From: Macrocybe gigantea
Taxonomy: Eukaryota > Basidiomycota > Agaricomycetes > Agaricales > Callistosporiaceae
Assembly: GCA_011319805.1 (NCBI GenBank)
Contig: SJRY01000272.1
Coordinates: forward strand, 482,129-546,128
Reading direction: 5' to 3'
DNA: 64,000 nt
A program made the translations under genes and the position numbers. The notes beneath the pieces were generated by a model. It made no database searches, had not been told where the DNA came from, and saw nothing but the letters and a program-made list of their open reading frames with translations. Shown here piece by piece: positions 33,204 through 62,870 of this stretch (position 1 is its first letter; every line of letters begins with the position of its first letter).

Positions 33204-36200
33204 ATGTCTGTGAACGAGCGACGACAAGCTAAACTTGAGCAGCATTTCAAAAGGTTTTTGCAGTCTAGGGATCCTCCCCTCTCTGCTCAGAAGGATTTGT
33301 TCTTGGAATCAATTATTGCACAGAATCCTGAGCGATGCGCCAGCGATTTGCTTGCAAGCTCGTTCGCCCTCAAACATCTTGCCTCATGCATGCACAGCGA
33401 CCTCAAGATTTCTTTCCTGAATGGACGAGCGACGGATCTGCTTATGTATCTGCAGAACCAAGCCATTGCTGGAATCAACAACGGCGAGTATCTCATACGC
33501 ATCCTTCAAGTGATTGTCGACCCTCCAATATTCTGGTCCGCATTCTGCGACGCGTTCAAGGGAGGAAGGCTTGAGAGCCAAGGAGAGTGAGTAGTATCCA
33601 ACATGTCTTCACTCGTGTTATCTTAATTTTGATATGTACAGGGAATGCTTCGCATGGCTACTGCATCGCCTCATTTCTTTGCCTCACAACGAGGCGACTT
33701 TGTATCGCCAACAGGCGGAGGGGGAATTCCTCACCCTTCTGGAAAATTCTCAAAACTCTAAAGTTCGCAATTTTGGCAGTAGAATCAAGCAGGTCCTCTC
33801 TGATACAGCAGACGCACCTGCTTCATATGCAGACAGCGTCCCAGGAGGCCGCCACGATAACGACTTCGTCGATTTCCGCAAGATATCCATTCTCCCTACC
33901 TCGGAGGAGATCAGTTCAACAGAGCGCCCTTTCTACAGGCCCGCCATCGTCATTGACAGCCCTGAAACGAAGGACAGTCGTGTTCCCATGTATCTTGACA
34001 ACCAATTCCGTTTGCTTCGAGAGGATATGTTGAGCGAACTCCGAGAGGAACTTCAAGTCATCCTTGGAACAAAGAAGAAGCGGCGCCGTGCAATCATCAT
34101 CGACGGGTTATATCCAGTAGAGATTTTCTGCAAGACAGACTCCAAGCGCCCACATAAATGGGGCATCAAGTTCAGGCTAAGCGAAGACCTTCCGCCGCTC
34201 CGAAATGTGCAACCCAAGAATCGTAGAGCGTTTGTAGATGAGAAACGGTGGCTACTTCCGCATGGCTCTCTGACGTGCTTACTTGTCAACGACCAGATCG
34301 TCGCGTTCCCCATCGTCAATAGAGATGAAGAGCTACTGGCAAAGAAGCCACCTATCGTCATCCTGCAGTTCGAGAATGAACTCAGCACAAAAGATGCCCT
34401 TCTCTCCCTCAAAGACGCCCAGTCTGTCAAACTTATCAGCGTCGATGTCGGTGTCTTCGCGTATGAGCCCATTCTGAGAGCGATTCAAGAAATGGGACGC
34501 TTCCCTTAAACGAAGAGATTCTTTTCTGGGAAGACGGCATGCGTCCCAAGTCTGCCAGCGTCATTCCGTCCAGCATTGTCGTCACCCTCCGCAACGATCC
34601 AACACGTAACCTCCAATCATACCTGCAAACCAGTAAACCCTAGTTTTGGGCGAATCACAAGTTGATTCCTTCGTGGCAGGTTTGACACAACGTGTGTCTT
34701 TGATCCAAGGTCCACCGGGTAAGTGAAACAATTTCTCATTTCACGTTTTCGTTAGCTCATTCGATATCTCATAGGGACCGGGAAGAGTTTCATTGGTGCG
34801 CTGATCGCGAAGGCCATCTATCAGTATACGGAGCAGCGTATTCTTGTTGTCTGTTATACCAATCATGCACTAGACCAATTCCTCGAGGATCTTCTGGACG
34901 CCGGCATTCCCGAATCTAGTGTTGTCCGCCTTGGCGGCAAGTCGACACCTCGAACTGCGGGCTTAGCACTTCATCAGCAGACGGACGTGTCATTCAACTT
35001 TCGGCGCGCAGACTGGACCATTATAGATGCACTCAAAGCCGCACTCCAAGACCATGCGGACGAATTGGATAAGTTTTTCGGCAGTACCGATCCACGCATG
35101 TACAACTGTCCGACCTGTTGGAATATCTGGAATTCGCGGAGCCGGACTACTATGTTGCATTTTATGTTCCACCTCCTGATTCGGATGGGATGGCCATTGT
35201 CGACAGGAAGGGTCGGCCATTACCACCTACCTTTCTCCTAAGTCAATGGGCGCAAGGCCGGAATGCAGGCCTTCTTCACAATAGCGCTCAGGTCCAAAAT
35301 GCCTCAGAAGTGTGGCAAATGCCGGCCACAGCTCGTCAACAGAAGATCGCGGAATGGAAGAAGAAGATCCTTGAGGAGGACATCGTGCGTCTCATAGATT
35401 CGGGAAAGCGATTCAATGTTTGCCAGGAACGACTTGTGCGCAAATTTTCGGAAAAAGATGTCTCGATCTTGAAGAGCAAGAGAATCATCGGCTGTACCAC
35501 GACAGCGGCTGCCAAGTACACAGACATTATCAACGGGGCCGCTGCTGACGTATTGCTTGTGGAAGAAGCTGGGGAAATTCTCGAGAGCCACATACTCACC
35601 GCTCTGGGCCAGTCTAAGGATCAATTGATATTGATCGGAGACCACAAGTAAGTCCTGCACTTCGCTATTGCTACGAGTAACTGATGCCCCTCAGACAGCT
35701 GCGCCCCAAGGTCAATAATTATCTTCTGACGGTGCGTGGTCAGACGTCACTCGCCTTTTTATCACACATTAATTGCCTTCCAGGTCGAGAAGGGCGAAGG
35801 ATATGATCTCAACATGTCCTTGTTTGAGCGGCTCGTGCTCAAGGGATACCCTCATACCACGCTCACGGAACAACACAGGATGCGACCCGAGATTTCTACT
35901 CTGGTGCGCGAACTGACTTATCCGGAATTGCAAGATGCTCCACAGACCAGAGGCCGTGACGATCTTCGAGGTGTGCGCGACAACATTGTCTTCATACACC
36001 ACTCCTACCCCGAAGACGAGAATAAGGACCTCGGTGATCGCCCTGAAGAGAACTATGGCGCCAAATCATCCAAACAGAACACTTATGAAGTAGATATGGT
36101 CCTGAAGATTGTTCGGTACTTGGGTCAGCAAGGGTATGGAACGGATGACCTCGTCATTCTCACCCCGTACCTGGGTCAACTGCAAAACATGATGTCGGCA

Positions 36201-39200
36201 TTGAAGAAGGACTCTGACCCCGTCTTGAGCGATCTAGATTCCTATGACTTGATCAAGGCGGGTTTAATCGATCCTGCCAACGCTGATGTGAAGAAGAAAA
36301 GGATTCGTCTAGCAACAATTGGTTCGTGGATCTTTCAGACTGTTGACAGGGATTGCCGCTCAGGTTCCCCCAAAGATAACTACCAGGGTGAAGAGAGCGA
36401 CATCGTCATCGTGAGCCTGACAAGGAGTAACCCGAATAACGATATCGGTTTCATGTACTCCCCGGAACGTCTCAACGTTCTGCTTTCTCGCGCTCGGAAT
36501 GCCCTCATTATGATCGGAAACGCTGAGACGTTCAAGAAAGCACGAAAAGGCAGAGAACTGTGGAATAAACTTTTCAGTCTTCTTGCGGCAGGAAATCATA
36601 TTTATGAGGGCTTACCGACTCGATGTCAACGTCACCCTGACAAGATCGCCATGCTGGTTGGTTTCATGTTTCCTTATTGTTGCGTGACGGGTTCATGTAC
36701 GAATCATAGAAAGAACCGCACGAATTTGACATTGAATGTCCTGATGGTGGTTGCCCGCGGCCATGGTGCGTGACGTACTTCTCGGTATGCCAGCGCTCTG
36801 ATTTTTTTTCCGACTCCAATCCTAGTGGTACTAAACTGAATTGCGGGATTCATGACTGCCCTTCCAAATGTCATCAGCTCTACGACCATTCCAAGATGCG
36901 ATGTGAATATCCGATCACCGATATATGCCCAAATGGACACCAGCAGCGATACATGTGTCATCAAGGCCCCCGTCTGTCTGTATGAAGTGCCAGAGCAGAA
37001 AGAACAAGCGGAACGTAAGCTCAAGGAAGAGACTCTACAGAAGCAGAAAAAGGAAGCCGAGCAGTTGAAGCACGATCAACGCATAGCAGAGCTAGAAATA
37101 GAGCTCAAGCGGCAAGAATTGCTATCGCTGACGCTCAGCTAGCTGAAGAGAGGGAACGCGCAATTCGTGACAAGGAGAAGGAGCTTCAAGAAATTAGAAA
37201 GATGGCTCACCGAGGCCGGAATGGCACGTTGCAGAGCGACTCGTTGCGGTCACCTCGCTCGTTCTCACCGACCCCGAGCCACAGTGCTCCAGACAATTCC
37301 GCCACTCCAGATCCGCCTGCATCCACGGGGACAGATCCATCGCCCAACCGGCTTACAGACACGTCCCCGTCCGAAGCCTCATCGAAACCCTCGGCTCCTC
37401 GACTATCTGAGTCGGAGGTGGAATGGGAACGTCAGAAACGAGTAGAAGGGGCAAACAACGATGCGATTGATGCCCTGATGAACATGACGGCTTTGGAGGA
37501 AGTGAAGGCCAAAGTGTTGGAAGTAAAGGCAAAGATTGACGTTACTACTCGCCAAGGGGCGTCGCTGAAAGGTGAACGGTTTAATGCCGTATTACTTGGG
37601 AATCCCGGTACAGGTATGCGTGGCGACTGAGAACTCATGCGAGCTTGTCTGATGATCCTACTAGGAAAGACAACCGTGGCTCGATTGTACGCCAAATTCC
37701 TCGCGTCTGTCGGCGTCTTGTCCAACAACGAGTTCATTGAGACGACCGGCTCAAGACTCGGAAATGACGGCGTTTCGAGTATTGAGAAGAAGATCAACGA
37801 GCTCGTTCAAAATGGCGGTGGCACGATCTTTGTCGATGAAGCATACCAGCTGACTAGCGGTCACAACTATCAAGGAAAACAAGTCTTGGACTTCTTATTG
37901 GCAGAAATAGAGAACAAAGCCGACAAAATCGTATTTCTGTTCGCTGGATATTCCAAGGAAATGGAACAGTTCTTCGAGCACAACCCGGGGCTAGACAGCC
38001 GAGTACCGTACAAATTCAAATTCGCGGACTACACAGACGACGAACTCCTCAAAATCTTTGTTGGGGCCATCACGTCAAAATGGAAAGGGAAAATGATCAT
38101 TGAAGGCGGTCTCATGGGCTTGTACAGTCGTATAGCTGTACGAAGAATCGGCAGAGGAAGAGGGCGAAATGGATTTGGGAATGCGCGAGCCATTCAGAAT
38201 ATGCTCGCTCAGGTTACAGGTCGGCAGGCGCGACGTATACGAAAGGAAAAAACGAAAGGCAGGACGCCAGACCATTTCCTGCTTACGAAAGAAGACCTCA
38301 TCGGACCGGATCCTGCCACGGCGATGAAGGAAAGCCTAGCGTGGAAAAAGCTTCAGAAGTTCATTGGCCTAGAGCAAGTCAAGAAAGCAGTAGAGCAACT
38401 TTTTTCGGTCATCGGCACCAACTACAAACGGGAACTCGCAGAGCAGAAGCCGTTAGACTTTTCCCTCAACCGGGCGTTCGTGGGTTCCCCTGGAACGGGT
38501 AAGACGAGCGTTGCTAAGCTATACGGGGAGATCTTGCGCGACCTCGGCGTTCTGAGCAATGGCGAAGGTAAGCAAATTCGGTGTGATGATAGTCAACTTG
38601 TCTCAGCTTCGACATCAGTTGTCATCAAGAATCCGGCCGATTTCATTGGAAGCGTCCTTGGAGAGTCGGAGAGCAAGACGAAGGCCATCTTGGCCACAAC
38701 TGCGGGAAAGGTTCTGGTAATCGACGAGGTATGACAACAATTAGTGAATATAAACAAGCGCCCTCAAGCACTGGCAGGCGTACATGCTATATACTGGGAC
38801 CGGAGGCACGGGCAACCAGTCAGACCCCTACAAGACGGCTGTCATCGACACACTCGTCGCGGAAGTTCAAAGCACTCCTGGTGAAGATCGATGCGTTCTG
38901 CTCCTCGGATACAAGCAACAGATGGAAGAGATGTTCCAGGTAACACAATATTTCAATTCGTGACTCCCGGCGTTGATCAGCTTTCGCAGAACGTTAACCC
39001 CGGTTTGTCGCGTCGGTTCGACATCGAAAACGCCTTCCACTTCGCCGACTACAATGATGAACAGCTGCTAGCGATACTGAACGGCAAGCTGAAGGACCAG
39101 GATTTAGATGCGACGGACGAAGCGAAGAAGGTGGCGATTGATTACCTGAGTCGGCTTCGGAACCGGCCCAATTTTGGCAACGCGGGGGAGGTCGAAAACA

Positions 39201-40869
39201 TCCTTGGCAAGGCGAAGGTGCGATGCCAAGGCCGCGCAACGGACGGACGGATTGTGCTGCAGCCGAGCGATTTTGACCCAGACTATAACAGACGGGACAA
39301 TGCGTCGACGAATCTAGCAAAGCTATTTGAAGGTGTCGTAGGAGCAGAGCACATCGTCGCGAAACTGGGTAGCTATCAACGCATCGCGCGCAAGATGGCG
39401 AACATGGGAAAAGACCCGAGAGACCAGATACCGATGAATTTCATCTTCAAGGGCCCGCCAGGTAATGCACAAGCGCCAAAGAAGGTTTTCTTGTACTCAT
39501 TGCCTTTTAGGAACGGGAAAAACGACGACGGCGCGCAAGATGGGTCAAGTTTTCTACGACATGGGTCTTCTCTCATCGGCAGAGGTCAAAGAATGCACTG
39601 CGTCCGATCTGGTGGGACAGTATGTCGGTCAAACGGGACCCAAGACGGTCAAAGTGTTCGAGCAGGCTTTGGGACGTGTTCTGTTCATTGACGAGGCGTA
39701 TCGCCTAGCGGAGGGGCACTTTGCACAGGAAGCCATGGACGAGCTGGTGGGGATCCTGACGAACGAACGGTTCAAGAGCAAGTTGGTGGTCATTCTAGCG
39801 GGCTACGATCAGGACATCAACCGGCTGATGCAAGTCAACTCAGGCCTGACGAGCCGGTTCCCCGAGACGATCGCGTTCCCGAACATGAGCGCGCGCGAGT
39901 GTTTGAAGATCTTGGGGATCGAGCTGAAGAAGCAGGGCGTGTTCGTGCCCGCGCTGCACGACAATGTCGCAAAGGTGCCGCGGGAGATGATGGATGCCTG
40001 GAGGAGCTGGCCGAGCTGCCGTCGTGGGGTAACGCGCGGGACGTCAAGACACTCGCGAGTCAAATGGTGCGGCTTGCGTTTGGACAAGACGACGACGCCG
40101 TGCCAGGATTAGAGCTCGTCTTGGCAGAAGACAAGGTGCTGAAATGCATGCGCGATATGCTGCAGGATCGCAGGGAAAGGGAGACGAACGTGTCGTCGGG
40201 AGGAGAGGCGGGCGTAGCTTTTCATCACCACCACCGCCGGTGCAGAACGCCACGGCTGAGCCACCTAAATCAAGACCGCGACTGCACAACGCGCGTCTGC
40301 ACGCTCTCCGCCACCACCCGAACCGGCGACGCCGCCGCCAGCACGGTCTCAAAAAACGCAAAAGGCGAACAAGTCGACGGCCGCCGCCGCCGAAGCGCGA
40401 CGGACCCTGGCGTATCTGATGAGGTCTGGGGGAGCTGCAACGCGCTAAAGACTCACAGAAGCGCGAAGAAGAACGGGTGGTTAACGAGTTGCGTCTCAAG
40501 GAGCAGATTATACAGCATGCGCGGCAGGAAGAGGCGAAGCGGCAGGCCGAGGCGAAAGCGCTTGAAGAAGAGATGCAGCGAAGGAGACAGCAAGAGGCGG
40601 ATGACGCGGCGATGCGGGAGCTCAAGAAGAAGATGGAGGAGGCGCGTCTGAGACAGCTGAAGGCTCGGCAGGATCGAGAGCGGCGCCAGGCGGAGCTGGA
40701 GGCCAGGCGGAAGGAAGAAGAGCAGAAGAGGAAGGAGGAGGCGCGGGCACAGGCCAAGTTGCGAGAGATGGGGTGGTGCGTTGCGGGATTCAGGTGGATT
40801 CCCGTCGGAGATGGGTATCGGTGTGCTGGTGGTTCGCATTTCGTGAGCAGGAGTCAGCTCGGGCTGTAA
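33204..40869 (+). CDS. Giant fusion: NFX1/ZNFX1-type SF1 helicase + Cys/His region + three CbbX-like AAA+ ATPases + coiled coil
   Basis: Modules in order. (1) An N-terminal region of about 450 residues with no named motif. (2) SF1 helicase core: GPPGTGKS (about 34713-34790, split by an intron), VVCYTNHALDQFL (34845), DVLLVEEAGE (35547), LILIGDHKQLRP (35627-35705), TEQHRMRPE (35863), YQGEESDIVIVSLTRSN (36382) and LNVLLSRARNALIMIGN (36470). (3) A Cys/His-rich NFX1-like stretch with CPDGGCPRPCG, CGIHDCPSKCHQLYDH and CHQG (36740-36970). (4) A basic/acidic coiled coil. (5) AAA domain 1: GNPGTGKTTVARLY with FVDEAYQL (37600-37850); domain 2: GSPGTGKTSVAKLYG with VIDEAYML (38485-38775); domain 3: GPPGTGKTTTARKMG with FIDEAYRL (39450-39705). 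(6) A Pro/Ala linker, a long R/E/K/Q-rich coiled coil and the tail WIPVGDGYRC. At least eight one-base losses at short homopolymers (for example 34503, 34638, 35074, 36967, 37117, 39999, 40428) interrupt the frame. Role unknown; ZNFX1 relatives act in RNA surveillance. Confidence 0.8.
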
Positions 40870-43277: not shown

Positions 43278-45368
43278 TCAAAACAACTCTGGATGCGTGA
43301 GAGCGAGGTGCTCCAAAACGAGATCCTCCTGCGCGTGTGGAATTCTGACAGGCGTATTGCGGGAGGGGCTACCCTTGACCCATTCAGGATTCACGCCGAA
43401 CTTCTCAAAGAATGTCTTCTCATACTTCTGGAACGGCGGGAACAGCAGCATCTCGCGAACGGCCCTCCAAGCACTGTCCAGAGCGCCGGCGACCCACGCG
43501 TGTCGGGTGCTGATGGCTTCTCCTGCAAAGTGAAGGTATCCTTTTGCGGCCGGGTCTGTCAAGCTCGTGTAAAGGTTTTCAAACTTGCCGGGTCCGAAGA
43601 AGCCAAAGGCACCTAGAAAAGGCACGTCAGACGTGGCGAACGTGCCACAAGCAGCTACGATGGACACGGTTGTGCTTACCCATGGTGTAAGGATCGTTGT
43701 TCCAGCTCCACGGTTTGGTGGCGATCAGCTGGTCGTGCAAAAAGTCCTCGGTCACGTTGTGTACCTTGGCGAGCTCCCTGATGACGAGGTGAACAAGCTG
43801 ATCGTCCGAAGGCTCAGTGATGACCGAATCCTCCGTATTGTCCTTGATCCACGCGCTCGTCCGCATTGCCTCTTCCATTGTGCTATAGCTCGCAATCATC
43901 GTGGGCGTCTTGCCGTGAAGAGCGTCTCCGAAAGAGGGATAGACGATGGTCTGAAGCGGCGTGTCGGTGGAGGACTGTCCTCCAATGATATTCAGCTTCC
44001 GGCCGCTCTCCGAGTTGGCTGTCGTCCACCACGCCGTCTTGAACTGCATACCGATCTTGATGGCAGGCGCGTAGTTGAGCTGTCGAAGGGCGTTGGCTTG
44101 GAGGGGAGTGAGCCCGGCGTCTTTGAGCTCGACGGTACGCATGACCGGGAGAGGCAGCGTGCTGACGACGTGCGAGAAGCGATGGTGTTTCTTGTTGTCC
44201 GTCACAATGTCCATGTAGCCGCTTTCCTCGTTGAGAGCCATGGACGTCACTTTGGTGTTGAGGATGACGCGATCGGGGTGACGCTTCAAGAGGTACTTGT
44301 GCAGGCTGTTTGCGATCTCCTGGGAACCACCGCTGAGCGTGTTTTGTCAGCACGCGCTGCCCGAAGAAAGAACGAGAAGAGACTGACTCGATGAGATACC
44401 ACTTTGCTGGAGGTGGCGAGTCGGGCTGCCACCCAAAGGAGATCATGTCGAGGACAAAGTCGGTGAGGGCACGATCGAACCTGTCCTTGGGATCGACATA
44501 CGTCTCGATCCAGTTGACGACGTCGACCGAAAGCGTTTTCTTCGGAATGTTGATGTTGTCGCTAGGCTTGTATTCGCCGATCATGTAGGAACGGACAGAG
44601 TGATGATCGTATTTCATCATAAACTCCCAGCCTTCCGTTCCACCCGTCTCCAGATCCTTGTACAGAGCACGGGCAAAGGGCTCGGCGACGTCGTTCATGA
44701 TCGCGTTCGGTCCCACGGCGATGTACTGCTGTGCGTCGGGCTCATCCTTGATGACCGCGCTCGCCTTGAAAGGATCGCCAGACGGCACCTCGTTCTTCCT
44801 CACCACCACTCCGTTGTAGGAAAAGAAGGCGCTGTCTTTGCCGGTACCAGAGTAGTAGTACGGTCTCAGCTTCTTCTTGAGTGCAATGTCGGGCGTGTTG
44901 AGGCCTGGATGGTCGAAGAGGTCAAAGACCCTCTTCATGGCGAGGACGTCAGGGAACCGCATAGCGCCGATGTCGTAGTAGTTGTATGGCGCGCCGGTGG
45001 GGTTGGGAAACTTGTATGTGAAGAGACGTCCTCCAACTCTGTTGCGTGCTTCCAGGATGCGATATGGGATGCCCAGTTCCTCGAGCATGAGGGCGGTGTA
45101 GAGACCCGCCGCACCTGGAGAGGATTGATGAGTTATGTTACTCGACTTGGCTTTGAAGCATGCACCGACCTGCTCCAATAATCCCGACAGGATCTATGGA
45201 CTCCGACCTATGGGTCAGAGCCGGCTGAAGGCGTACGCTGGTGAGGTTGAGTGGGATGCCGAGCGTCTGCTTCAGGTTGTCGTTGTAGGATTGTATCACG
45301 TTACGGGCATGATGAGCCGTCACATCGTAGGGCATAGTGACGATGGGACCATTAGTGATGAGCGACAT
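43278..45368 (-). CDS. L-amino acid oxidase (FAD-dependent)
   Basis: Flavoprotein that oxidatively deaminates L-amino acids to keto acids, ammonia and hydrogen peroxide. From ATG 45368: a 40-residue lead, then the FAD-binding GIIGAGAAGLYTALML, split by an intron within the glycine motif (about 45180-45118). Next come LEARNRVGGRLFTY, the aromatic-lined DIGAMRFPD and WQPDSPPPAKWYLIE, and after an intron GGSQEIANSLHKYLL. Later blocks are HVVSTLPLPVMR, MQFKTAWW and the C-terminal FAD contact GYLHFAGEAISTRHAWVAGALDSAW. The end, LALTHPELF, is followed by a stop at 43278. No signal peptide is evident, so it is probably intracellular or released otherwise. About 620 residues with four introns; no lesion. 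The mushroom LAO family matches in length and order. Confidence 0.9.
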
Positions 45369-52960: not shown

Positions 52961-54171
52961 CTGCGAGGAACATATTCTTCTCTTTTCGGCGGACCTAAGT
53001 TGAAAATATAAAGGAAGACGCTGAGCGCGGCGGAGAGGTTCAAGCTTTTGAAGACTGCCCGGCCATTACTTAAATCAGATCAGATCAATAGCCGTAATTA
53101 TGGGTGATGCAGCTGAATTCGATGTACGACGCTGATCGTTACGATGGTCAGTGCCGCGCGTTGGCCATTACCTCGACATGCGAATCCGACAAACGATTTG
53201 GTGTGCTTGGTGTCCTATGCGAGGGTTCACACTAGCCGAAAACGTATGCGAGGAGTCCGATGGAATTACCTACATTTCTAAGTTTTGGATTAAATTCTGC
53301 TGAGCGGATTGAACCTAGCAGGTCATCGTTGCGCAAGGCACAACATCATGATGTGTAGCACATGCCAACATGGTTGGAGTCAGTCGGCAAGCTGAAGTGA
53401 GATCGAAACGCCTTTGCACGTTTACATAGGAACACCGTAGACATTCACATAGTGTCCACATGCGACGACCGCTCAGTATGTTGGCAACTGAGGACGAAGC
53501 GTGGCAATAGGCACGAACATCCTAAAGGTCTGAAATCATTTTTGAATCAGAGCGTGTAAACACACACCGTCACCGGTAAAGAAACAAAGTCGTCATTTGT
53601 GAATGCGTTGTGAAGAATTGCAGTATAAAGACATTCGAATGGACCAAGATGTCAATATTGTCAATACTAACACCCGTCCCTGAATTTTGGTCTGCGCGCT
53701 ATTTAGGGCGAGTAAGGTGTTAGAAAATACGCACCACTGAATTCATAACCACGAAGTACCGTAGCTATCTATTGGTTCAAGCTGTTCTTTGACTGACAGC
53801 CCTCGGGAAGATCCGTGACAGCGGCAAACCAGTCGACATTCTTAAGTTGCCACTTTTCCAGCACCTCGACACGGTCTACGTCGAACGAACCTTGCGATCA
53901 ACTACGGCGAAACTTGATCGCCGTCGAAACGCATTGGATGGTGCAGTATGGCCAGGTGTTTAACACGTGCCGTGGCTCGACGTCCATCCAGGTCAGCACT
54001 CCTGCAGATCTTCACACCGCCATAACCCGTATCTTCAAATCGTTGTAGGAACCACCTTGGGGTCTATAGCGATTCAGTTTTTCAGTTTTTATTGTAAAAA
54101 GCAACGCACATAGCCGTACTCATCGTCGTCGAACTACGAGGTCGACAGATCCCCACGCTATCGGTCTCCCA
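52961..54171. other. Intergenic region
   Basis: About 1.2 kb between divergent genes. A 77-codon frame at 53815-54048 has no family resemblance and is not called. Confidence 0.35.
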
Positions 54172-55422
54172 ATGCCTTCGCGCCTTCCTTGGGAGTTGAT
54201 TGACGATATACTCCACTACCTCCAAGTCGATCCTTCGACTCTCAAGTCGTGCAGTCTAGTTTGTCGCTCGTGGACCCACACTTGCCACATCCACCTTTTC
54301 CGGCATCTCCATGTCCATCTCTCGGCAGCTGATACTCCAGGTAGTCGCACTCAAAGTCTTTTCGACGAGCTCAGATCTTCTGCCTCGATGCCAGAGCTCA
54401 ACGTGGACGATATTAGCTCATTTGTCAAGTCCTTGTGTCTTCGAGGAGATCTTTCGCGGGCATCCATCGCTAGTGACCGTTTACTCCACAAGATTGCTGA
54501 ATTTCGGAAAGTCGAAACTTTGAAGTTAACCAACATCCGAGACTTGCCACTTTGGAGGCAGGCTGATGCGGGCGGAAATGCAGTGTGGCTAGAGAGCCTC
54601 GGGTCGGTCCGAGTGCTCACATTGAAAGACTGCGGGATCACTCTAACCGTATTCTTCGAACTCCTCTGGCATCTACCCCACTTACACACCCTCATTCTCG
54701 ATACAATTTTTTGGCATTATGATCACGACGTCCCGCACTCGCGATTGGCCCAAATTCAGATCGCGCAGAACATTCACACCTTGGTTATTGGACCGCAGAA
54801 GGATTTAGTCGTATTTTACATGTTGAGAAGGGCGTCGGAGAGCGGTTTGTTAGGAGATTCTGTTGAAGAACTTCGTTTCGATTACAGGAGATCGCTTGGA
54901 AAGTCGTCTGCGAAAGCTTTGCTCAAAGCTCTTCCCTCTCTGAAGGACATAACGATAAGGATTTACCGCGAACATGGTGAGTGTGGCTGTCTATAGCAAA
55001 TGTATCTCAGCTCACGCTGCTGCTGCATCTTCCAAGTTCCTTCGTCAGTTGGCCGGCTGAAGCTTCGGTACCATCCCAATCTTGTCCACATACGTTTTAG
55101 TGCCGCTGTTCAGGCAGAGTCTCTGAAACCCAAAGAAAACTACAAACATACACTGGATTGGGTTTGCACGACGATATTGAACCTACGATCATCGTCGTTG
55201 AGCAATATCACATTCGACTATAGAGGTTGGCCAGAAGGAACAACACTAGAAGCCATCGATTGGACACAGCTATGCGAAGTTCTGAGATCCAAACGAAGAG
55301 AAAACGAACTACGAGTTGTGTTTCGTTTACGTGCTATACACGACCCAAGCGCATGGACTCTGCGTGACGTTATTAGCCGGCTGCCGGGCCTTGAAGACAT
55401 AATATTCATAGTTCGCACTTGA
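54172..55422 (+). CDS. F-box protein with LRR-like C-terminus
   Basis: Likely substrate adaptor of an SCF ubiquitin ligase. The N-terminal F-box is LPWELIDDILHYLQVDPSTL followed by KSCSLVCRSWTHTC, with the usual Leu-Pro, Ile-Leu and Cys-x-x-Val-Cys-x-x-Trp positions. The rest (about 360 residues) has irregular leucine-rich repeats such as VETLKLTNIRDLPLW, VRVLTLKDCGITL, LPHLHTLILD and LKDITIRIY. One intron splits EH|VPSSVGRLKLRY (about 54977 to 55030). Stop at 55420. No lesion. Such F-box genes are very numerous in Agaricomycetes and usually fast-evolving; the substrate is unknown. Confidence 0.85.
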
Positions 55423-60975: not shown

Positions 60976-61086
60976 TGTGGAGTTGGGAGGTAGTCTGGCA
61001 TTCCCACGGTCGAGTTTGTTCCCTTCCACTCACTCGGTGCCGCTCCTCGCCGCTGCTCGTCGCCGGACTCATGCCCGCTCACCGCC
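60976..61086. promoter_or_regulatory. Short bidirectional promoter region
   Basis: Only 111 bp separate the start codons of the kelch gene (minus, ATG 60975) and the second F-box gene (plus, ATG 61087). Both promoters and both 5' leaders must fit here or overlap the opposite gene. No TATA box is evident. Confidence 0.5.
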
Positions 61087-62870
61087 ATGAACATTGCCCA
61101 CCTCCCCAACGAGATCCTCATCACTGTATTTGAGGCGCTCGCAAGCCCCGCAGACCTCCTCCCGGTAGTCCAGACATGCCGACACTTTTATGCGCTTGCC
61201 ATCCGCGTGCTCTATCGTCGCATTCATTGGTCCAACCCTTTGCACTACGCCATGAACGCCAAATTCTGGGACAACTGCAACCCATCTGTGGCCAGGGTAC
61301 CTATCTCCCTCTTCGTTGGCATCTCTCACATGCATCCAAACTCGTTTGCCAGATTTGATCCATCCTCCGCCATCGTTGAAGCAGACGGCTCCTGGAGTTT
61401 CGCCTATGCTCCTGGCAGTTCCCACGTGGGACACGGGAACGACGGCGTCACTGCCCGCGAGCTCAATCGCATGTCCTTTTTCGCGACAAAGGCCTTGTAC
61501 GGCGCCATGTCCGACCGCATTGCTACCTTCGTCATGCTTCGTGAGCTAGTGTTCCACCATGCGGATTTGCCGGACATCATCTACAACATGATCAAGAGCC
61601 TCCCGCGTCTCTCCACTCTCGCCATCCAATATTGTACCCTGCCCGTCGTCCGCACCGAACCCGATACCACACTCACCGAGCTCCCGCTCACGGAACTTAC
61701 CCTCTGGTACTGCAAGGGCGAATCTGACTCCATCCCAATGTCGAGCTATACCTACGCCCTGCATCTTTGTACCGCACGCAATCTCCGAGTTCTCAAAGTC
61801 GATTGGACCACCGTGACTGCCCGCTTCTTCTCCGGTCAGAAGAACTGGTACTCAGCATCCCCCTTCGCACAGCCCGAAAACCTCGAGGAAATCACTTTTC
61901 GTATGCCATCCTCCAAATTTTGGCCCTCGGAAAACGAGCCGTCTCGCAACCTGCTCATCAATCCACTCATCGCATTCCTCAAAAACGCCAAAAAGCTCAG
62001 CAAGTTGACATTCATGAACCGTCTCCCACCCTTTGAAATCCCCGTCGAAGCAATCCCAACCTTCGACACTATGTCGGACCCTTGTCGACTGTTCTTTCCT
62101 TTGTCAAGACTCGTCCTGTCCGCCATGTCGAGGTCACCGACCTGGAGAAAAAGTTTGTCGACTATGTGGACCTCCTACCTGTCTTAGCCGTTGATCGGCC
62201 CAACCTCCTTTCGTTGTCGTTGGCCATGCGTGACTGGGACAACGAAATCATGTACGCTGTCACGGAGCTCTTTAGCGAGCTCCGGCATCTCAAGATAACT
62301 TATGAAGACAAGTACCTTCTGAGGTATGTCCGAGTTTATTCACTCAATGTGACACTGACAGTCGCCAAGTATACCCTTCTGAGCCTTGGCTCTCACTTTC
62401 TTCATCGGCTCCCTTGCTTGGAAACTTTGCGCATCTATCAACTATCTGCGCCGCCTAGCGTTCCACCGGATCATTTCCCACCACCGCACCCGCAACACTA
62501 CTTTCTTCACCACGAACAACATCTTTCCACCCAGCTTACAGACAGTACCCCACTACAAGCTGTTTCAAACTCTAACTATCACAATGCCTCCCTCGGAAGC
62601 TCGGATGATGAATCCGATGAGGAAATCGTGACGACAGTCTCGCGGAGAGTCCGGATCAATCGTTCTCCGTGCATGCGTTATCAAGGACCCGGCGCCAGCA
62701 CCAATGACGATGATGTCCGAGACCTCATCATCCCATGGAAGAAACACTGCAAACGTCTGATGGAGATCCAATTTGCTGAAGGTGTCGTCTGGCGGAGGGC
62801 ATTCGATGGTGACAAGTGGTGTCGCCGGACGCTGGACCCTGCTGATCGGTGGAGAGAACTGCTTGGATAA
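61087..62870 (+). CDS. F-box protein (second)
   Basis: N-terminal F-box IAHLPNEILITVFEALASPA followed by LLPVVQTCRHFYALAIRVLY. The long C-terminal part has irregular leucine-rich stretches such as LRELVFHHADLPD, LPRLSTLAIQYC, LPLTELTLWYCKG and LSKLTFMNRLPPF. The frame changes near 62079-62081: TFDTMSDP must continue as LSTVLSFVKTRPVRHVEV, which needs one more C in a ccc run. Beyond it come LLSLSLAMRDWDNE, an intron after YEDKYLL (donor at about 62321), LHRLPCLETLRIYQ, an acidic SSDDESDEEIV stretch, and the terminus WRELLG at 62870. Whole protein about 570 residues. Likely SCF adaptor; substrate unknown. Confidence 0.75.

What the first reader, a model, noticed from the sequence alone, without database searches (positions are those of the whole stretch)
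33204..40869. One gene fuses an NFX1/ZNFX1-type helicase, a Cys/His zinc region and three CbbX-like AAA+ ATPases
Seen: all SF1 helicase motifs, then NFX1-like CxxC/H clusters, then three separate Walker A/Walker B pairs of the CbbX/SpoVK kind, then a long coiled coil. Known: ZNFX1-type helicases act in RNA surveillance and antiviral defence in animals; CbbX-like AAA rings remodel proteins. I recall similar uncharacterised fungal proteins, so the architecture may not be new, but its function is. Inference: an RNA- or stress-sensing NTPase coupling a helicase to a remodelling ring. Helicase motif II reads EEAG rather than DEAG.
Basis: partly seen in the sequence, partly recalled or inferred. Interest (0 to 1): 0.75.

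Follow-up and report, generated by a model that had tools for sequence, protein, structure and literature searches.

The report
Fungal RNA-helicase and chaperone-motor fusion protein
A fungal gene really does join an RNA-surveillance helicase (ZNFX1 type) to three protein-remodelling motors in one protein; many other fungi, mostly mushrooms, carry the same protein, and I found no study of what it does.

Summary
At 33204-40869 (+) one spliced gene (12 short GT-AG introns) encodes a helical N-terminus, an SF1 helicase, a Cys/His region, a coiled coil, three CbbX/SpoVK-type AAA+ domains, a second coiled coil and a conserved Cys/His tail. The frame changes without introns all shift the same way and look like assembly errors. 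The helicase is ZNFX1-type: human ZNFX1 scores 325 bits against about 105 for the next solved structure. Motif II 'EEAG' is the family norm (119 of 119 readable homologs; ZNFX1 has EEAA). The architecture is not new: the 120 listed of 1315 homologs share it at 48-58% identity, mostly Agaricomycetes; some Ascomycota have it, and a 2023 preprint mentions SF1-helicase fusions in this AAA+ clade. The modules also occur apart, and the states interchange many times on trees (split gene models inflate this). Most likely it is an RNA-surveillance or silencing helicase carrying its own dedicated AAA+ chaperone that remodels proteins on RNA: inferred, not shown. A predicted model of a homologous triplet places AAA2-AAA3 like the stacked D1-D2 of Drg1/Cdc48, so a three-tier motor is possible. 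Verdict: real, a new member of a known but uncharacterised family.

The parts
33204..40869 (+). Whole gene, ATG to stop; helicase + Cys/His region + AAA x3 + coiled coil + tail
   Evidence: Splice and frame model; full-length homologs
33204..33845 (+). N-terminal helical domain (query residues 1-195; limits approximate)
   Evidence: Home-made profile in 119 of the 120 listed full-length homologs; all-helical in the model of homolog P0122
33846..34637 (+). ZNFX1-like region before the helicase core (PTxxE...PFxRP...YLDxxFRLLRED)
   Evidence: Homolog P0001 aligned to human ZNFX1 9q9z residues 413-475, i-Evalue 0.0049; inside the 203-1073 fold match of P0122
34640..36590 (+). SF1 helicase core, motifs I to VI
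   Evidence: Pfam AAA_11/AAA_12; ZNFX1 best PDB match of the window's own protein and of homologs; motif conservation
35556..35591 (+). Helicase motif II, LVEEAGEILESH
   Evidence: EEAG in 119 of 119 readable homologs, one gap
36322..36375 (+). In-frame 54-bp intron between motif IV and motif V, not removed in my first search queries
   Evidence: GT...AG; homolog P0001 lacks these 18 residues (sequence)
36624..36990 (+). Cys/His region (NFX1-like); spans two introns and one placed frame change, a second follows directly
   Evidence: Cys/His nearly all in 119-120 of 120; P0001 aligned to ZNFX1 there; Pfam NF-X1 finger not reached
36993..37447 (+). First coiled coil and Ser/Pro-rich linker to AAA1; no stop once one frame change (near 37113) is bridged
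   Evidence: Translation
37448..38251 (+). AAA1: Walker A/B, GY, Arg finger and sensor-2 Arg kept; no aromatic pore loop
38369..39271 (+). AAA2: Walker A/B, GY and Arg finger kept; sensor-2 Arg replaced by Gly
   Evidence: Gly in 119 of 120 listed homologs
39323..40084 (+). AAA3: keeps a CbbX-like pore loop, LVGQYVGQT
   Evidence: pore-loop Tyr in 113 of 120 listed homologs
40085..40425 (+). End of the AAA3 stretch and Pro-rich linker with several frame changes not placed precisely
   Evidence: Three-frame reading
40426..40869 (+). Second coiled coil and conserved tail (tail 40726-40866, CxxGFRWIxxxxGYRCAGGSH), stop at the end
   Evidence: tail profile (built from 100 of these fusions) in 127 of 135 helicase+3AAA and 95 of 110 AAA-only proteins

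Best explanation
It is one polypeptide in which a ZNFX1-type RNA helicase is permanently tethered to its own dedicated AAA+ chaperone of the SpoVK/CbbX/EccA clade. Proposed working: the N-terminal helical domain, helicase and Cys/His region find and move along an RNA or RNP; the coiled coils bring chains together; the AAA triplet forms a ring stack in which AAA3, the only domain with an aromatic pore loop at the CbbX position, pulls on or reshapes a protein bound to that RNA (a silencing complex, a polymerase or a coat protein), while AAA1 and AAA2 drive assembly and power. Shown here: domain content, family identity, and conservation of the catalytic residues. Inferred: RNA as target, oligomer, substrate, and a role in RNA surveillance, silencing or antiviral defence.
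Against: No direct evidence for RNA binding, oligomer or substrate. The AAA part is dispensable in evolution: 66 of the 120 helicase-length homologs listed have no AAA domain by my profiles (at least one, P0167, is a split gene with a Pfam AAA piece), and AAA triplets exist without helicase, so a tight mechanical coupling is not obligatory. The Cys/His region does not reach the Pfam NF-X1 model. AAA2 lacks the sensor-2 Arg of the clade. By Foldseek E-value the triplet model's first six rows are Drg1, Cdc48 and Rix7 chains, with CbbX at rank 7. Both structure models are of homologs (P0250, P0122), not of the window's own protein. RNAi genes in the genome show no link to this gene.
Confidence: 0.5

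Rival explanations
1. The AAA triplet is mainly an ATP-controlled assembly scaffold: it clusters helicase chains into a ring and so turns the helicase on, as in switch-like signalling ATPases, and does not thread a protein.
For: Only AAA3 keeps an aromatic pore loop at the CbbX position. Coiled coils lie on both sides of the triplet. Some helicase-only paralogs keep the tail but no AAA (tail profile in 9 of 66).
Against: AAA3 keeps a CbbX-type pore loop (Tyr in 113 of 120) and all three domains keep Walker B and Arg finger, more than a scaffold needs. Clade relatives with known function are chaperones.
Confidence: 0.2
2. A fast-evolving innate immune or self/non-self gene: local duplications, loss of the AAA part and module reshuffling reflect conflict with viruses or transposons.
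For: Fusion and helicase-only states change at least 23 times on the helicase tree, fusion and standalone AAA at least 13 times on the AAA tree. MkoA match. A relic-like second locus in this genome.
Against: Catalytic motifs are almost invariant rather than diversified. Split gene models inflate the change counts. Only one full fusion was found in this genome (such counts are lower bounds).
Confidence: 0.18
3. The window's copy is a decaying pseudogene.
For: Seven frame changes without intron placed, several more in the linker.
Against: All seven shift the same way, no in-frame stops in the read-through, splice sites present, catalytic residues kept. This is the pattern of base-dropping sequencing error. 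Other genes of the window were not checked for the same pattern.
Confidence: 0.07
4. Two neighbouring genes read as one.
For: Some relatives are annotated as two adjacent proteins, e.g. Blastosporella P0134 and P0351 with consecutive locus tags. In the window the stretch from helicase to AAA1 is open only after bridging frame changes.
Against: All 120 listed full-length homologs from many genera are single proteins.
Confidence: 0.03

Closest known systems
Unnamed fungal family annotated as 'P-loop NTPase', 'CbxX/CfxQ family protein' or 'NFX1-type zinc finger-containing protein 1' (e.g. Amanita inopinata AX17_007240, Cyathus striatus P0068)
   Same: Same domain order over the whole length, 48-58% identity in the listing; P0068 is nearest, 65% in the helicase and 73% in the AAA part
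   Different: No difference of architecture found; this copy carries assembly-like frame changes
Human ZNFX1 / S. pombe Hrr1 / C. elegans ZNFX-1
   Same: Helicase core, TNHALDQF and EEA motif II, region upstream of the helicase (only human ZNFX1 was compared)
   Different: They lack the AAA triplet (recalled); here the Cys/His region is short and weak and no RZ-type finger is found in the tail
CbbX, SpoVK, EccA AAA+ chaperones
   Different: Three domains in one chain; AAA2 lacks sensor-2 Arg; AAA1 lacks the pore-loop aromatic
Cdc48/p97, Drg1, Rix7 tandem AAA proteins
   Different: Three AAA domains, not two; about 16% identity
Mokosh MkoA (bacterial anti-phage helicase)
   Same: Helicase region, 250.1 bits for the own protein, 228.6 for P0122
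   Different: No AAA triplet (recalled); Mokosh partner parts were not looked for

Membership tests
ZNFX1-type SF1 helicases | Helicase core closer to ZNFX1 than to UPF1, SEN1, Aquarius or IGHMBP2 | tested here: met
ZNFX1-type SF1 helicases | Motifs shared with ZNFX1: TNHALDQF and EEA in motif II | tested here: met
   Alignment of P0001 to 9q9z; 120 listed homologs and the window
ZNFX1-type SF1 helicases | NF-X1 zinc fingers after the helicase | tested here: inconclusive
   Cys/His conserved and aligned to ZNFX1, but Pfam gave 0.092 on a hand-written consensus and nothing on the real P0003 piece
Animal ZNFX1 proper | C-terminal RZ-type zinc finger (recalled as a ZNFX1 feature) | tested here: not met
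   No RZ match in the window's last 147 residues or the tail consensus; the model does find it in a ZNFX1-like protein, L052
Hrr1 / RDRC RNA-silencing complex | Works with an RdRP | not testable with these tools
   RdRP and Piwi genes exist in the genome, no link shown
SpoVK-CbbX-EccA AAA+ clade | GY signature at sensor-1 | tested here: met
   All three domains, 119-120 of 120; feature from PMC10659427
SpoVK-CbbX-EccA AAA+ clade | Asn 4 residues before the first Arg finger | tested here: inconclusive
   Asn conserved (120, 117, 120 of 120) but the conserved Arg is 6 residues after it
SpoVK-CbbX-EccA AAA+ clade | Second Arg finger (sensor-2) | tested here: inconclusive
   Met in AAA1 (120 of 120) and AAA3 (117, three gaps); not met in AAA2, which has Gly in 119 of 120
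SpoVK-CbbX-EccA AAA+ clade | CbbX-type lid (AAA_lid_6) | tested here: met
   1e-19, 2 stretches
SpoVK proper | NCBIfam spore_V_K score over its cut-off | tested here: inconclusive
   429.8 against 422.95 on homolog P0250, but summed over three domains
CbbX (Rubisco activase) proper | NCBIfam cbbX_cfxQ score over its cut-off | tested here: not met
   369.7 bits, summed over three domains, below 459.25, on homolog P0250
Mokosh | MkoA-type helicase domain | tested here: met
   1.4e-74 on the own protein; domain resemblance only
Mokosh | Partner or fused nuclease part of the Mokosh system (recalled) | not tested
   Not looked for

The most novel reading that the evidence does not exclude
A three-tier AAA+ motor: the triplet builds three stacked hexameric rings (one tier more than Cdc48/p97) fed by a tethered ZNFX1-type RNA helicase, making an RNA-gated machine that strips or unfolds proteins on viral or transposon RNA. 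The helicase-only paralogs that keep the tail would be regulatory partners in mixed assemblies.
Probability: 0.15. Interest if true: 0.7.

Novelty: new member of a known kind. Interest (0 to 1): 0.38.

Why it matters
ZNFX1-type helicases act in small-RNA inheritance and antiviral defence in animals, yet their fungal relatives that carry a built-in AAA+ chaperone appear unstudied in the literature I could search. If the coupling is real, these proteins give a tractable system for asking what ZNFX1 helicases do to RNA-bound proteins, in cultivable mushrooms and in filamentous ascomycetes.

Tried and rejected
Rejected: EEAG as an anomaly. Rejected: CbbX as a Rubisco activase (fungi have no Rubisco, recalled). 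Not supported: origin in a bacterial helicase-AAA operon. The one genome-contig scan (two peptide patterns, 166 stretches) gave two loci, both in one Verrucomicrobiaceae MAG; of the two only the L052 protein was scanned with Pfam and it shows a ZNFX1-like protein with an RZ finger and no PF00004 AAA match at 0.01. The L053 ORFs were only read by eye. The patterns were strict, so absence elsewhere shows little.

Tested without gain: whether the C-terminal tail is a degenerate RZ finger (no Pfam match). Whether the helicase beside an RdRP at C271:365-370 kb is a ZNFX1 relative (it is UPF1-like). Rfam and tRNA scans of the window (no match). An NCBIfam scan of window pieces failed for a wrong frame.

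Limits: the homolog lists show only the best 120 of 1315, 3144 and 7673 hits, each with about 7990 candidates scored, so counts describe the listed sets. Candidates were limited to 0.55-1.75 times the query length, so separate genes could hardly appear there. The domain profiles were built from the same 120 fusions that they then scored, and the tail profile from 100 of them. Proteins from metagenome sources may be cut at introns, so forms with helicase and one or two AAA domains (17 and 31 of the 360 listed) may be truncations, and some helicase-only forms are truncated or split gene models (P0167 is one: the listing shows a Pfam AAA piece). Trees are FastTree with long branches flagged; the AAA tree leaves 25 'partial' rows uncounted, and the helicase tree uses only proteins with 0 or 3 AAA domains. 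The query with the 18 intron-derived residues was used and, through the saved file. VIA and Foldseek matches of AAA2-AAA3 to tandem AAA proteins may reflect what AlphaFold2 learned from Cdc48-like chains. Class names of fungi are recalled from the species names.

Literature: searches showed no functional study of the fungal fusion in their listings. PMC10659427 (passages) does mention SF-1 RNA helicase domains in eukaryotic members of this AAA+ clade. PMC9276528, PMC12511879, PMC5437159 and PMC6770048: passages only. PMC11574294: search listing and start of abstract. The U. maydis helicase survey lists four SF1 RNA helicases and its text has no occurrence of ZNFX1, NFX1 or Hrr1, but human ZNFX1 is not among the human helicases of the table that I saw, so this is no test.
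Full report
OBSERVATION. The window lies in an unnamed 41.2-Mb genome of 333 contigs, fungal by its homologs. The gene runs from the ATG at 33204 to the stop at 40869. Splicing at GT-AG introns of 47-60 bp joins eleven places. A twelfth, in-frame intron at 36322-36375 is recognised because homolog P0001 lacks its 18 residues. Seven further frame changes have no intron; each shifts the same way, and most of them touch a short run of C. More lie in the linker before the last coiled coil. With no in-frame stops in the read-through, splice sites in place and intact motifs, I read them as dropped bases in the assembly; decay is unlikely but not excluded, and no other gene was checked for the same pattern.

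DOMAINS. Pfam finds the two SF1 helicase halves, AAA domains and the CbbX-type lid. The order is N-terminal helical domain, helicase, Cys/His region, coiled coil, AAA1-AAA2-AAA3, linker, coiled coil, and a tail of the form CxxGxxWIxxxxGYRCAGGSH. An intron falls in or beside the Walker A codons of the helicase, of AAA1 and of AAA3.

FAMILY. A whole-length search gave 1315 hits, of which the best 120 were listed and fetched. All 120 have the helicase, the Cys/His region and three AAA domains by profiles built from these same sequences; 119 also have the N-terminal domain. Identity is 48-58%; for four of them the best local alignment covers only 57% of the query. By name most are Agaricomycetes; a few come from unnamed sources and two bear Ascomycota names (Sticta, Geoglossum). 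Records named Alternaria alternata (P0172), Teloschistes (P0204) and Monilinia (P0233) also have all three AAA domains. So the architecture is common and probably old.

CATALYTIC STATE. Over the 120, helicase motif I is invariant and motif II is EEAG in 119 of 119 with letters. Walker A Lys is invariant in all three AAA domains. Walker B Asp/Glu is invariant in AAA1 and AAA3 and present in 116 (four gaps) in AAA2. The Arg finger is kept in 120, 119 (one gap) and 120. The domains differ: AAA3 keeps a CbbX-like pore loop (Tyr in 113), AAA1 lacks it, and AAA2 has Gly in place of the sensor-2 Arg in 119.

WHAT THE HELICASE IS. For the window's own protein human ZNFX1 is the best solved relative, 324.9 bits against 105.3 for the next; homolog P0001 gives the same order. 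A model of the helicase-only homolog P0122 (pLDDT 86.5) matches ZNFX1 best by Foldseek and by VIA-align, with 659 residues at 3.2 A. By Z alone UPF1 is nearly tied (31.2 against 32.1) but with 5.8 A and 21% identity. The helicase also matches the anti-phage helicase MkoA (1.4e-74).

MODULARITY. Searches at helicase length and at triplet length listed 120 each. Among the first, 66 have no AAA domain by my profiles, 17 one, 31 two and 6 three; among the second, 94 are AAA triplets with no helicase, Cys/His or N-terminal piece, 25 triplets carry some such piece, and one has only two AAA domains. On a 193-row helicase tree the fusion label changes at least 23 times; on a 245-row AAA tree at least 13 times. 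Split and truncated gene models inflate these numbers. Some AAA-less forms nevertheless look genuine: nine of 66 keep the tail, P0121 keeps fragments that by eye resemble the end of AAA2 and what follows it in P0003, and P0137 ends in an MA3 domain instead. The tail goes with the AAA module: 127 of 135 helicase+3AAA and 95 of 110 AAA-only proteins. In 12 cases two listed fusions of one species share a contig length, which points to local duplication. In this genome only one full fusion was found.

MECHANISM. I commit to a tethered RNA-surveillance helicase plus dedicated chaperone (confidence 0.5). Support comes from the roles of ZNFX1 relatives in small-RNA amplification and viral RNA recognition (PMC9276528, passages), the dedicated-chaperone character of the SpoVK/CbbX/EccA clade (PMC10659427, passages), the retained catalytic residues, and RNAi genes in the same genome. 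RNA target, oligomer and substrate are all inferred.

NOVELTY. The preprint PMC10659427 already states that this AAA+ clade includes eukaryotic proteins predicted to act in RNA processing and that eukaryotic members carry an SF-1 RNA helicase domain. The window's gene is therefore a new member of a known, uncharacterised kind. I found no functional study.

Noticed in passing
L049 (G000:C216:46500-52500) and near-identical L050 (C248:14000-20500): A second locus keeps an N-terminal-domain piece (about 39-45% identity) and the tail (71-72%) of this family with no helicase or AAA match between them: a relic or chimera of an old copy.
   Followed up: partly
L051 (G000:C271:362500-372499), about 110 kb upstream of the window: An RdRP gene is followed on the same strand, about 2.5-3.5 kb on, by a UPF1-like SF1 helicase; possibly one RdRP-helicase gene.
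   Followed up: partly
L052 and L053: Two intronless ZNFX1-like proteins in one Verrucomicrobiaceae MAG; L052 has an RZ-type finger by Pfam. Probably eukaryotic contamination or gene transfer.
   Followed up: partly
window 40726-40866: A conserved C-terminal Cys/His tail (GYRCAGGSH) follows the AAA module in fusion and AAA-only proteins, occurs twice in some AAA-less paralogs (P0123, P0132, P0188), and its consensus matches no Pfam family.
   Followed up: partly
P0137 and P0144 (Desarmillaria and Armillaria homologs): Helicase-only paralogs that end in an MA3/MI domain (translation-factor type, recalled) instead of the AAA triplet (P0137; P0144 by the precomputed listing only).
   Followed up: no
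window 34719, 37614, 39462: Introns fall in or beside the Walker A codons of the helicase, AAA1 and AAA3 but not AAA2.
   Followed up: no
window 43886-45193 (-) and 54070-54993, 60994-62184 (+): By eye only: an amine-oxidase-like flavoprotein frame and two F-box-like frames.
   Followed up: no
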